Both the position numbers and the translations under genes were made by a program. Under the pieces are notes generated by a model, which was not told the DNA's origin, made no database searches, and was given only the letters and a program-made list of their open reading frames with translations. This document shows positions 45,754 through 49,669 of a stretch of DNA of 64,000 nucleotides, in pieces. Source of the DNA: a candidate division FCPU426 bacterium (GTDB lineage Bacteria; Oederibacteriota; Muellerivitia; Muellerivitales; Muellerivitaceae); assembly GCA_027452205.1 (NCBI GenBank), contig DAIDGV010000001.1, positions 1 to 64,000 on the forward strand, written 5' to 3'. Within the stretch, counting starts at the first letter, position 1. Every line of letters begins with the position of its first letter.

Positions 45754-47013
45754 TTAGTTGCGGTATTTCAGCCATCGCAGGGGGTCTTGGGGGACTCCAT
45801 TTTTGCGGATCTCAAAGTATAAACTGCTGCCCACCAGCGAATCCGTGTCGCCCACCAGGCCCAAAACTTGGCCTGCCGCTACCGAATCCCCCTCCGAAAC
45901 CTTCAATTCCGAGGCTTGGGCATAGAGAGAATAATACCCCCTCCCATGGTCCAAAATCACTAGCTTTCCAAAGCCTTTGAACCAATCGGCGTACTTCACG
46001 ACCCCTGCGGATACCGCGTGAATAGGGCTTCCCATGGGGGCCTGGATCTGGATACCCGAGTTATCCACCTCGAGGTGGAACTGGGGGTCCTTGCTCTTGC
46101 CAAAGTAAGAAATGATCTTACCCGACACCGGCCAGGGCACCCGGCCACGGATGACCTGAAGTCCCTTTCCTTCGGGGACCGCTTCCAGCACGGTGACCAC
46201 TGTAGCCGGCGCGGAAGCGGTCGCCTTGACCTTTTTGGTGACCTTCCGTTTTTTGGGCGCCTTTGCTTCTTCCCGGATGATCTGCGCGACTTTGTTCTGA
46301 AGCTCATGGGCCGACTGGGTCAGCTTTTGGATGGTCTTTTCCCTCTCTTCTTTTCCCTGACGGATCTTTTCCAAAGCCGCGGCGCGGGTCTTTTTTTCTT
46401 GGTCATAGTTCTTTTCTTTTTGATCGAGACGGACCAGCATCTTTTGCTTTTGATCCGCTTCGATCTGCAGCCGGGCCGAATCCCGTTTTAGGCGGGCCTC
46501 ATCCTCGACGGTTTGGGCCAAAAGTTTTTCGTTGCTACGGGCCAGCATCAGGCTGAATTTCAACTTGCGGGAAAGATCGGCCACATTGTCCGAATCCAAA
46601 AGGCCGTCCAGGACCGGGTGCTGGAAGGACATGCGGTAAAGGTCCCGGAGACGCTGGGCCAGCATCCGCCGGCTGCGTTCCAACTCCGCCCTTTTTTCCT
46701 CCGCTTGTTCTTGGAGCTGATCCCCTTGGGCCTCGGTGCGCTTGAGGGCGATCTTGTTGGATTCTTTGACCCGGCGTAATTTATGGAGCTTTTGATCGAC
46801 CCGGTGGATGCGGTTCAGGACATGCTTCTCTTTGAGCTCGTCCTGCCTTTGTTTTTTCTTTTCTTCTTTTATTTTCTTTTGGATGTCCGCCAAACCCTTT
46901 TTGTTGCTCTGCAGGGTCCCTGGCGTCGTTTCGTTGTCCTGGGCCAGCGCGAAGGACAAGCCGAGAAGGAAAAGAATTAGGGGTAAAAAAGAAAATCGGG
47001 AGAAAAATTTCAC
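45754..47013 (-). CDS. envC: EnvC-type murein hydrolase activator with degenerate LytM domain
   Basis: The GTG at 47013 overlaps the ftsX stop (GTGA) and starts directly with a signal peptide, FFSRFSFLPLILFLLGLSFA. It gives 419 residues. Residues about 30-255 form two long coiled coils (KKQRQDELKEKHVLNRIHRV onward); a Lys/Ala linker follows; the LytM domain occupies about 310-415. Its zinc ligands are gone: the HxGxD site is replaced by NSGIQIQAP and HLHFE by SLYFEI. It should therefore activate amidases rather than cut peptidoglycan. Position after ftsE-ftsX fits E. coli EnvC, which is controlled by FtsEX. A longer start at the ATG at 47031 is possible. Confidence 0.92.
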   Translation of the reverse strand: MKFFSRFSFLPLILFLLGLSFALAQDNETTPGTLQSNKKGLADIQKKIKEEKKKQRQDELKEKHVLNRIHRVDQKLHKLRRVKESNKIALKRTEAQGDQLQEQAEEKRAELERSRRMLAQRLRDLYRMSFQHPVLDGLLDSDNVADLSRKLKFSLMLARSNEKLLAQTVEDEARLKRDSARLQIEADQKQKMLVRLDQKEKNYDQEKKTRAAALEKIRQGKEEREKTIQKLTQSAHELQNKVAQIIREEAKAPKKRKVTKKVKATASAPATVVTVLEAVPEGKGLQVIRGRVPWPVSGKIISYFGKSKDPQFHLEVDNSGIQIQAPMGSPIHAVSAGVVKYADWFKGFGKLVILDHGRGYYSLYAQASELKVSEGDSVAAGQVLGLVGDTDSLVGSSLYFEIRKNGVPQDPLRWLKYRN

Positions 47014-47912
47014 AAAAGTTCTTTCACCCATTTTTTCTGTAGGGCCCAAAAAGCGCCCAAAAGTCCAAGCACGGCCCCGATCACGATCAGGTTCAGGTAA
47101 AGGCTGAGCCATTCTTGGAAAGGCAGGGTCGCCAAGATATCGAAACCGCCATATCGCTGCAGGGCCTGGCCCGCGAAGCGGCGGACCGCTTCCAGGAAGA
47201 CCATCACCAAAAAAGCCCCGAAAAAACCCTGAAAGATCCCCTCACAAAGATAGGGACCCCAACGCATCCAGGTCGGCGCGCCCAAACGCACCATGGCGAT
47301 CATGTCTTCCCGGCGAGCCCAAAGGGCCAGGGTCAGGGTATTGGCCACGATGAAAAGCGCGGTCAAAAAGACCACACTGGCCATGATAAGGCCCGACCAA
47401 CGGATGACCCGGGCCAGGTTGGACACCGCTTCCCATTGGCCTTTGCCGTAACTGACATCCTCGACCCCCGCTTCTTTCTTGAGCGCGGTCGCCAGCGCGT
47501 CCACTTGATCGGCCGTTTCAGGCTTTAGGATCAGGGTGAAAGAATCGGTCAAGGGATTCTCTCCTAGGGCGCGGACCATTTGGTCGATCGCCGGATCCCG
47601 GCGGAATTCTTGCAAAGCTTGTTCCTTGGTGACCAATTGGGCGGATTGCACCCTTTCGTCCTGGCTCAAGACCGATTGAAGATGCTCGGTCTCGGACCGG
47701 GTCGCTGAGGCTGAAAGAAAAACCGCCATTTCCAGCTTTTGATTGGTCGAGGCGAAAGCATGGTCCAAAACCCGGGAAATGCCCAGAAAAAGCGATAATT
47801 GCAGCAGGGTCGCCGCCACGATGATGATGACCGCCACCGACAAACCGCCGGATCGGAGGACCTGGAGGAACCCTTCCCGGAACACATAGCCTAATCGGGA
47901 TATCCAATTCAT
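47010..47912 (-). CDS. ftsX: Cell-division ABC-transporter-like membrane protein FtsX
   Basis: A 300-residue type-VII ABC-like membrane protein. The first membrane segment is near residues 22-45, the periplasmic domain follows (about 50-165, MAVFLSASATRSETEHLQ), then three segments with the conserved ARREDMIAMVRLGAP coupling region. FtsX passes a signal from the cytosolic FtsE to EnvC in the periplasm. ATG at 47912 overlaps the ftsE stop by four bases. FtsX itself looks normal, in contrast to FtsE. Confidence 0.94.
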   Translation of the reverse strand: MNWISRLGYVFREGFLQVLRSGGLSVAVIIIVAATLLQLSLFLGISRVLDHAFASTNQKLEMAVFLSASATRSETEHLQSVLSQDERVQSAQLVTKEQALQEFRRDPAIDQMVRALGENPLTDSFTLILKPETADQVDALATALKKEAGVEDVSYGKGQWEAVSNLARVIRWSGLIMASVVFLTALFIVANTLTLALWARREDMIAMVRLGAPTWMRWGPYLCEGIFQGFFGAFLVMVFLEAVRRFAGQALQRYGGFDILATLPFQEWLSLYLNLIVIGAVLGLLGAFWALQKKWVKELL

Positions 47913-48604
47913 GAGACCTTCTCCTCAAGGGGATAAAGCTTGCCGCCGTCCAATTGGATCCAACGGATGGCCAGGTCTTCCCCGCTTTTTTTGACTTCAT
48001 CCAAGAATGCCGTCTGCCGGGCCGACAGAACGATGGTCGTGCCCGTCTTATTGAGCTCCCTCAAGAACTTGAACAAAAGACCGAAAGCTTCCCCTTCCAC
48101 ATTTTGGAAAGGATCATCCGCCACCAAGAGCCGGGGACGGAAGATCATAGCCCGCAGCGCCATGACCAGTTGGTTCTCCCCATCGGTCAATTCGCTGGGC
48201 CGCATTTGGGACTTGTGGGCCAAACCCGCTTTGGACAGGAGGATATCCACCGCCGAGAGCGAATCCTCATCCCAAAAACCTTTGGCGCGCAGGGTAAAGA
48301 GGATGTTCTCCTCGATACTGCGGTCTGAGAACAGCTTGAAGTCGGAAAAGACCATCCCCACGTCGGACAGCCAGCGATTGCGTTGAGAAGGGGTAAAAGC
48401 GAAAGGATCTTGATGGCCGATACGCAGGGTACCCGCCGCAGGGCGTTTTTCCCCGGCGAGGATCTTCAGGAAAGCCGTGGCAGCCAGCACGTTTTCGGAC
48501 AAAAGGACGGTGTAAGAGCCCTCAGGGAAGGAGAAATAGACGTCATCCAGCAGGGGGAGGCCCGTTTCGTCCATTTGGAAAAGGTGAAAACCTTGGATGA
48601 GCAT
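47909..48604 (-). CDS. ftsE: FtsE homologue with all ATPase motifs altered (probable pseudo-ATPase)
   Basis: A 231-residue ABC-type nucleotide-binding domain that aligns over its length with FtsE: FPEGSYTVLL, ILAGEKRPAAGTL, LSDVGMVFSDFKLF, RPRLLVADDP. The catalytic motifs are changed. Walker A (GHSGAGKST in E. coli) is SENVLAATA (residues 36-44); the Q-loop Gln is Ser (GMVFSD); the LSGGE signature is LTDGE; Walker B has DD instead of DE; the H-loop His is Arg (SARQ). The translation was checked base by base across the Walker A region (48473..48499) and shows no frameshift. The ATG at 48604 is preferred over an upstream TTG. It is coupled to ftsX, so it is probably still expressed and used, perhaps as a structural adaptor. 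Confidence 0.85.
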   Translation of the reverse strand: MLIQGFHLFQMDETGLPLLDDVYFSFPEGSYTVLLSENVLAATAFLKILAGEKRPAAGTLRIGHQDPFAFTPSQRNRWLSDVGMVFSDFKLFSDRSIEENILFTLRAKGFWDEDSLSAVDILLSKAGLAHKSQMRPSELTDGENQLVMALRAMIFRPRLLVADDPFQNVEGEAFGLLFKFLRELNKTGTTIVLSARQTAFLDEVKKSGEDLAIRWIQLDGGKLYPLEEKVS

Positions 48605-48652: not shown

Positions 48653-49669
48653 TCAGGAAGCGGGGGCCGCCTGGGCTTTTTTGGCCCGCCGCGCCTTCTT
48701 AGCGAGCCTCACGTTCTTCTCGTGTTCCGCGAAGGTCGTGGCAAAAAGGTGGGAACCATCCCCGGCGGCTACATAGTAAAGGTAGGGTACGTCTGCGGGC
48801 TCCAGAACGGCGTTCAAGGAAGCGAGACCCGGATTACAAATGGGCGTCGGCGGCAGACCCCGGTGCATATAGGTGTTATAGGGCGAGTCGGTGTTGTGGA
48901 TCTGGTCGGTGGTCAGCCAGGCGTGCTTGGTATTGAGGATATAGTTCAGGGTGGCGTTCACCTGCAGGCGCATCTTTTGGCGCAGACGGTTATACATGAC
49001 CCCCGCGATGATGGGCCGTTCATCGGCGTTGTGCGCCTCTTTCTCCACGATCGAGGCCAGGATGACCGCCCGATAGGGGGTCAAGCCCTGCTTCTGGCAC
49101 TTCTTCTCGAAATCCGGTCCCACTTCTTGCCAGAATTGTCTCACCATCAGTTCGATCAGTTCATCACAGCTGGCGCCCAGGGGCAGGCTGTAGGTCTCGG
49201 GGAACAGGAACCCCTCGGCGGTCGGCCCCACGATCTTCAGGTTCTTTAAAGCCACTTGGTTCTGGGTGGCCTTCAAGAAATCATCACTGGATCCCACATT
49301 GAGCTTTTGGAATTCCTCGGCGATCTGCTCGACTGTATAGCCCTCCGGCACCTTCAGGGCCATCAAAGTGCTCCTCCCTTCGGACAGGGTGGTCATGACA
49401 TCCCACAGGCTCATCTGCCCGTTCAAACGATAAAGCCCTGCCTTCAAATGCCGGTCGGCGTGGGTCAGTTTGGCCAGGACCAGGAAGGGGGTCTTGAAGT
49501 GAATGATGCCCTTTTCTTGCAGTTGTTTCACGATCTCCCGGGCGCTGGTCTTGGAATAAACGGGAAGGTCCACATCCTCGCTTGAAGCGAAGAAATTAGG
49601 TATCAGGATAAAAGCGAGAGCGGCGAAAAAGAGGCCGCCGAAGAGCATGTAGATACGGAATATTTTCAT
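48653..49669 (-). CDS. mltG: Endolytic murein transglycosylase MltG
   Basis: A 338-residue inner-membrane enzyme (YceG) that cuts nascent glycan strands. A membrane segment is near residues 5-27. VPEGYTVEQIAEEFQKL is a LysM-like part. The catalytic Glu is in ASIVEKEAHNADERP, followed by VMYNRLRQKM and the SPYNTYMHRGLPPTPICNPG signature. The tail is Lys/Ala-rich. ATG at 49669 overlaps ruvX by four bases. mltG-ruvX linkage with alaS is a common arrangement. Confidence 0.96.
   Translation of the reverse strand: MKIFRIYMLFGGLFFAALAFILIPNFFASSEDVDLPVYSKTSAREIVKQLQEKGIIHFKTPFLVLAKLTHADRHLKAGLYRLNGQMSLWDVMTTLSEGRSTLMALKVPEGYTVEQIAEEFQKLNVGSSDDFLKATQNQVALKNLKIVGPTAEGFLFPETYSLPLGASCDELIELMVRQFWQEVGPDFEKKCQKQGLTPYRAVILASIVEKEAHNADERPIIAGVMYNRLRQKMRLQVNATLNYILNTKHAWLTTDQIHNTDSPYNTYMHRGLPPTPICNPGLASLNAVLEPADVPYLYYVAAGDGSHLFATTFAEHEKNVRLAKKARRAKKAQAAPAS

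What the first reader, a model, noticed from the sequence alone, without database searches (positions are those of the whole stretch)
47909..48604. FtsE homologue that has lost every ABC-ATPase motif but stays in a coupled ftsE-ftsX-envC unit
Seen: the protein aligns end to end with FtsE, yet Walker A is SENVLAATA instead of GxSGAGKST, the Q-loop Gln is Ser, LSGGE is LTDGE, Walker B DE is DD and the H-loop His is Arg. The frame is intact and overlaps ftsX by ATGA. Known: FtsEX needs ATP hydrolysis to activate EnvC in E. coli. Inference: in this lineage FtsX-EnvC signalling may be ATP-independent, or another NBD supplies catalysis, with this protein kept as a scaffold.
Basis: partly seen in the sequence, partly recalled or inferred. 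Interest (0 to 1): 0.85.

Follow-up and report, generated by a model that had tools for sequence, protein, structure and literature searches.

The report
Naturally ATP-dead FtsE beside FtsX and EnvC
In a group of uncultured bacteria (candidate division FCPU426), the motor protein of a conserved cell-splitting switch has lost its ATP-handling residues step by step, yet the gene is still kept next to its partners, which suggests that the switch can run there without burning ATP.

Summary
The 231-aa ORF at 47909-48604 (-) is FtsE by best match and position, but Walker A, Q-loop Gln, signature, catalytic Glu, D-loop, A-loop and switch His are all altered. There is no frameshift and no intact FtsE elsewhere in the 99.4%-complete genome. 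Relatives change the picture. Most other families of the phylum have textbook FtsE, but the window's order is degenerate in a graded way. Seven sister species lack the Q-loop Gln, switch His, A-loop aromatic and mostly the catalytic Glu, yet keep Walker A. Only the window's lineage has also lost Walker A. Two other families carry ftsX-envC with no ftsE at all. The window gene is not a plain pseudogene: core kept, 4-bp gene overlaps, FtsX coupling helix kept, changes concentrated on ATP motifs. But it evolves about twice as fast as ftsX. Best reading: a hydrolysis-dead lineage in which this species has moved on to a nucleotide-free pseudo-NBD that holds FtsX-EnvC as a scaffold. Biochemistry is untested. 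A new variant of a known kind.

The parts
47909..48604 (-). pseudo-ATPase FtsE homologue (231 aa)
   Evidence: open frame; TIGR02673 110.5 bits; best PDB matches FtsE
48473..48499 (-). Walker A position, SENVLAATA (GESRTGKST in six of seven family relatives, GDSRAGKST in one)
   Evidence: alignment
48344..48346 (-). Q-loop Gln replaced by Ser87 (Pro in 6/7, Ser in 1/7 relatives; Gln in canonical members)
48176..48190 (-). signature LTDGE (LSSGE in family, LSGGE canonical)
48110..48127 (-). Walker B LVADDP: Mg Asp kept, catalytic Glu is Asp164
48095..48106 (-). D-loop QNVE; the order shares DDPFQ or DEPFQ in place of DEPTG
48017..48019 (-). switch His replaced by Arg196 (Gln in family)
47010..47912 (-). 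ftsX, 300 aa; only FtsX_ECD protein in the genome; start overlaps ftsE stop (ATGA)
   Evidence: PF18075 57.6 bits, one copy in genome, overlap
47277..47318 (-). FtsX coupling helix ARREDMIAMVRLGA, the FtsE-docking segment, kept
   Evidence: FtsX alignment; role from PMC7468199 and PMC11139282
45754..47013 (-). envC, GTG start overlapping ftsX stop (GTGA); LytM domain lacks the HxH zinc ligands (LYFE), i.e. an amidase activator
   Evidence: NF008644 135.9 bits, PF01551, alignment, overlap
48653..49669 (-). mltG (YceG family), upstream neighbour on the same strand
   Evidence: PF02618 296 bits
44138..45700 (-). CtpA-type S41 peptidase, downstream neighbour on the same strand
   Evidence: PF03572 183 bits

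Best explanation
This is the orthologue of FtsE turned into a pseudo-ATPase. Shown by sequence: throughout this order the switch His and A-loop aromatic are lost, and the catalytic Glu is Asp in most members. In the family the Q-loop Gln is gone too, while Walker A stayed. In the window's lineage Walker A and the signature then eroded as well. Inferred: most of the family still binds ATP, as a structural ligand, with little or no hydrolysis. In the window species FtsE binds no ATP and acts as a nucleotide-free NBD dimer docked on the FtsX coupling helices. It stabilises and places FtsX-EnvC at the septum, and control of the amidase comes from septal recruitment and from EnvC/amidase autoinhibition rather than from an ATP cycle.
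For: Motif loss and graded series. Canonical FtsE in most other families of the phylum: 23 genomes at 254-282 bits next to ftsX, against at most 223 bits, the level of other NBDs, in the degenerate or FtsE-less families (second query). Single ftsX and no intact ftsE in a 99.4%-complete genome. The best other NBDs inspected belong to units of their own. Retention: open frame with ATGA and GTGA overlaps; 60/70 core hydrophobic columns kept, as in relatives (56-62); order-specific DDPFQ kept; FtsX coupling helix and ECD kept. Changes at columns invariant in seven relatives hit ATP motifs 19/32 against 23/83 elsewhere, p=0.002. Non-catalytic LytM EnvC, Amidase_3 and FtsA present. Literature: E. 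coli D162N FtsEX supports EnvC-dependent separation; V. cholerae cited as nucleotide-independent; Fusobacterium FtsX-EnvC is needed for cytokinesis without an adjacent ftsE.
Against: No biochemistry. The window-lineage branch of FtsE is about twice that of FtsX (0.81 against 0.39 substitutions/site, the two genes near-equal on other branches within the family), so constraint is relaxed at least in part. Third positions are saturated, so branch dN/dS is not usable. In E. coli K41A and E163Q block amidase activation, so an ATP-free complex would need compensating changes that I could not identify. The structure model was too poor to use (mean pLDDT 57).
Confidence: 0.65

Rival explanations
1. 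Gene on its way out: FtsE became dispensable once hydrolysis was lost, and in the window species the protein drifts under weak constraint, as an intermediate before the complete loss seen in two other families that keep ftsX-envC alone.
For: Faster FtsE branch in this species; ATP motifs hit hardest; families f4/f5 have ftsX-envC with no ftsE.
Against: Neutral drift to about 54% identity leaves about 5 stops on average (no stop in 1% of simulations); codon-position differences of about 0.37/0.29/0.59 still show constraint; hydrophobic core and DDPFQ kept; strict 4-bp overlaps kept.
Confidence: 0.22
2. Another NBD supplies ATPase activity, by replacing FtsE on FtsX or by pairing with the pseudo-FtsE as in heterodimeric ABC transporters with one degenerate site.
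For: The genome has dozens of FtsE-like NBD matches; a Fusobacterium FtsX pulldown recovered an ABC ATP-binding protein (PMC5915739).
Against: Five of the best-scoring other NBDs inspected sit beside their own permease or system genes; none scores like FtsE; the FtsE signature motif is also damaged, so a hybrid would have at most one weak composite site.
Confidence: 0.1
3. Artefact: sequencing error or assembly chimera in the motif region.
For: The genome is a draft of 28 contigs and the genus has a single genome in the collection.
Against: Substitutions are in frame, multi-nucleotide and spread over the gene; other frames do not restore the motifs; relatives already lack several of the same motifs; GC3 0.69 is equal in ftsE and ftsX.
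Confidence: 0.02

Closest known systems
FtsEX-EnvC-AmiA/B of Escherichia coli / FtsEX-EnvC of Pseudomonas aeruginosa
   Same: ftsE-ftsX-EnvC partnership, FtsX ECD, coupling helix, catalytically dead LytM EnvC, Amidase_3 in the genome, FtsA present
   Different: FtsE lacks the ATP-binding and hydrolysis residues; in E. coli K41A and E163Q mutants are defective (PMC12505981)
FtsX-EnvC of Fusobacterium nucleatum without an adjacent ftsE (PMC5915739)
   Same: FtsX-EnvC apparently working without a normal FtsE
   Different: There no ftsE lies at the locus; here a degenerate FtsE is kept in an overlapping gene unit. The FtsE-less families f4/f5 of this phylum are the closer match
ABC proteins with a degenerate nucleotide-binding site (TAP, CFTR NBS1, TM287/288; review PMC7756269)
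   Same: Loss of catalytic and signature residues with protein retention
   Different: Those keep one canonical site in a heterodimer or full transporter and bind ATP at the degenerate one; here, if a homodimer, both sites are lost including Walker A

Membership tests
FtsE | best family match FtsE and score over the curated cut-off (TIGR02673, 264.85 bits) | tested here: not met
   FtsE is the best of 131 families but at 110.5 bits
FtsE | encoded directly upstream of ftsX (orthology by position and sequence) | tested here: met
   same place as in the degenerate and canonical relatives; 45-52% identity to seven family members
FtsE | Walker A GxxxxGKS/T, Q-loop Gln, LSGGE, Walker B DE, switch His | tested here: not met
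   SENVLAATA, S87, LTDGE, D163-D164, R196
FtsE | docks on the FtsX coupling helix | tested here: inconclusive
   the coupling helix is kept in FtsX and the cavity Phe (F86) is kept; binding itself not tested
FtsE | ATP binding and hydrolysis | not testable with these tools
   needs purified protein
ABC_tran (Pfam PF00005) | match over the gathering score | tested here: met
   55 bits against 25, residues 19-166
FtsX | FtsX extracellular domain PF18075 over cut-off, one per genome | tested here: met
   57.6 bits; single copy
EnvC (non-catalytic LytM activator) | coiled coil plus LytM domain without zinc ligands | tested here: met
   PF01551 100.8 bits, LYFE in place of HLHFE, coiled-coil region
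heterodimeric ABC with one degenerate site | a paired NBD with a canonical site in the same unit | tested here: not met
   no second NBD in the unit, no intact FtsE in the genome

The most novel reading that the evidence does not exclude
A type VII ABC mechanotransmitter that works with no ATP at all: a symmetric NBD pair with both nucleotide sites gone still holds and gates FtsX-EnvC. The phylum would preserve the stages in living species: ATPase FtsE, ATP-binding but hydrolysis-dead FtsE, nucleotide-free FtsE, and FtsX-EnvC without FtsE.
Probability: 0.45. Interest if true: 0.8.

Novelty: new variant of a known kind. Interest (0 to 1): 0.62.

Why it matters
Whether FtsEX needs ATP binding, hydrolysis or neither to switch on septal amidases is reported differently for different species. 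A natural series from intact to ATP-dead to absent FtsE, with FtsX and EnvC kept throughout, gives ready-made constructs to test which step matters. A symmetric ABC unit with both ATP sites erased would also be unusual for the superfamily. I found no paper describing a naturally degenerate FtsE, within the limits of an open-licence library.

Tried and rejected
Compensating frameshifts in the motif regions: rejected. A relocated intact ftsE: not found with two different queries. The best-scoring NBDs inspected in the own genome and in G003 and G008 sit in units of their own. Branch-specific codon model: unusable because the window branch is saturated; the fitted omega is not meaningful, so I relied on protein branch lengths, codon-position differences and site patterns. 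Structure prediction from the five sequences allowed gave mean pLDDT 57; I did not use it and ran no fold search. Enrichment of changes at ATP motifs against the FtsX-coupling cavity alone is not significant (p=0.096); only the tests against the rest of the protein are. The number of independent losses in the phylum stays open: the AlaS tree is weakly resolved at the base.

Full report
What is there. The ORF 47909-48604 (-) encodes 231 aa without stops. FtsE is its best NCBIfam match, at 110.5 bits against a cut-off of 264.85, and the best solved structures are FtsE proteins. It lies between mltG and ftsX-envC on the same strand. ftsE/ftsX overlap by ATGA and ftsX/envC by GTGA, so the three genes look translationally coupled. 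The Walker B Asp is kept.

Is it real. The motif regions align with relatives without gaps, other frames do not restore the motifs, and several codons differ at two or three bases. GC3 is 0.69 in both ftsE and ftsX. The genome is 2.89 Mb, 28 contigs, 99.4% complete with 0 contamination. It has one FtsX_ECD gene and no canonical FtsE. Five of the best-scoring other FtsE-like NBDs sit with an 866-aa ABC permease, a LolC/E-like permease, a MacB-like permease with a membrane-fusion protein, Mla-type genes, and a sulfate-type permease pair (names for these neighbours are my reading of the sequences).

Relatives. The nearest relatives outside the window's genome include records named candidate division FCPU426. 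The collection holds 45 genomes of the phylum; 43 have an FtsX match. In 23 genomes a textbook FtsE scores 254-282 bits beside ftsX. In the families f1 (the window's), f2, f3, f4, f5 and f10 the best NBD anywhere is at most 223 bits, the level of other NBDs; a canonical FtsE protein as query gives the same split, 212-232 bits against at most 163. In one further genome (G012) the ftsE at ftsX is cut by the contig end.

The graded series (invariant-column table). Other families with FtsE: GPSGAGKST or GPSGAGKTT, VFQ, LSGGE, ADEPTGNLD, switch His (a few single-residue variants, e.g. one LSCGE). f2 (one genome, G023): GVNQVGKTS intact as a P-loop, Q kept, LSFSE, DD, His lost. f1 relatives (seven genomes): GESRTGKST (one GDSRAGKST), Q replaced by P (6) or S (1), LSSGE, DD in 5 and DE in 2, His replaced by Gln in all. 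Window: SENVLAATA, S, LTDGE, DD, R. All nine share DDPFQ or DEPFQ in place of DEPTG. So hydrolysis residues are lost across the lineage, while the ATP-binding P-loop is lost only here. In f4/f5 the place before ftsX-envC is taken by a Crp/Fnr regulator and no FtsE is found. In f3 (G002) an FtsE-like gene before ftsX has GSGQSL, no DE and no His, and in f10 (G022) the signature is LARGE and the His is gone. The AlaS tree puts f1+f2 in one clade and f4+f5 in another, each with full support; deeper branches are weak, so the number of independent losses is not settled.

Is it kept or decaying. For: intact frame; codon-position differences to relatives of about 0.37/0.29/0.59; core hydrophobic columns 60/70, relatives 56-62; simulated neutral drift to about 54% identity leaves about five stops on average and an open frame in 1% of runs; FtsX coupling helix ARREDMIAMVRLGA kept. 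Of columns invariant in the seven relatives, 19 of 32 in ATP motifs changed in the window protein against 23 of 83 elsewhere (Fisher p=0.002), which points to release of the ATP site rather than uniform decay. Against: on a fixed tree the window branch is 0.81 for FtsE and 0.39 for FtsX, while other branches within the family are near-equal between the two. Constraint is thus looser here, and dN/dS cannot be estimated because third positions are saturated.

Partners. EnvC in the window and across the sampled phylum has LYFE (LYFQ in one) where catalytic LytM domains have HLHFE, so it should be an activator, not a hydrolase. Amidase_3 genes are present in all 45 genomes, in G000 close to ftsA on contig C10. 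The order, f1 and f2, shares an Arg two residues before the coupling-helix Gly-Ala (RLGA, RMGA), where most others have a hydrophobic residue, a possible co-adaptation with the altered FtsE. The window EnvC also carries an insert of some 20 residues between coiled coil and LytM domain that its relatives lack.

Mechanism. Literature: ATP binding drives displacement of the EnvC restraining arm, and hydrolysis resets it (PMC12505981). E. coli D162N complex still supports EnvC-dependent separation, less well without NlpD (PMC7343993). E163Q complex with ATP activates AmiB in vitro, FtsX-EnvC alone does not add significantly, and V. cholerae is cited as nucleotide-independent (PMC11139282). K41A and E163Q are reported as blocking (PMC12505981). 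Fusobacterium FtsX and EnvC are needed for cytokinesis with no adjacent ftsE (PMC5915739). On this basis I propose, as inference, that the family first fixed FtsE in a hydrolysis-poor, ATP-bound state and that the window species then dispensed with ATP, FtsE serving as a structural partner of FtsX. The rival that the gene is drifting towards the FtsE-less state of f4/f5 stays open at about one in five.

Verdict. Observation confirmed. Interpretation partly supported, with the important correction that P-loop loss is seen in this species only and the rest is lineage-level. A new variant of a known system, with a good natural series for testing the role of ATP in FtsEX-EnvC.

Noticed in passing
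L079:1638-2318, L080, L081, L083, L084:1607-2287, L085, L086: In families f4 and f5 of the phylum a Crp/Fnr-type regulator (cNMP_binding + HTH_Crp_2) sits directly upstream of ftsX-envC where ftsE lies in relatives, and no FtsE was found in these genomes.
   Followed up: partly
L087:1685-2407 (G002) and L077:1338-1997 (G022): Two further families have an altered FtsE before ftsX: G002 with GPSGSGQSL (Lys to Gln), no DE, no switch His; G022 with an intact P-loop and DE but signature LARGE and no switch His.
   Followed up: partly
window 47277-47318 (FtsX coupling helix) and f1/f2 relatives: The order carries an Arg two residues before the Gly-Ala of the coupling helix, where most other members of the phylum have a hydrophobic residue; possibly co-adapted with the altered FtsE.
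   Followed up: no
window 45754-47013 (EnvC): The window's EnvC has a Lys/Ala-rich insert of about 20 residues between coiled coil and LytM domain that its family relatives lack, in the one species that also lost Walker A.
   Followed up: no
L088 (G011): ftsX in the f5 genome G011 directly follows a UvrA-like gene and runs off the contig end; no ftsE or Crp/Fnr gene is seen between them.
   Followed up: no
L123 (G025): AlaS of relative G025 has an internal TAA within the match, possibly an error in a 65%-complete draft.
   Followed up: no
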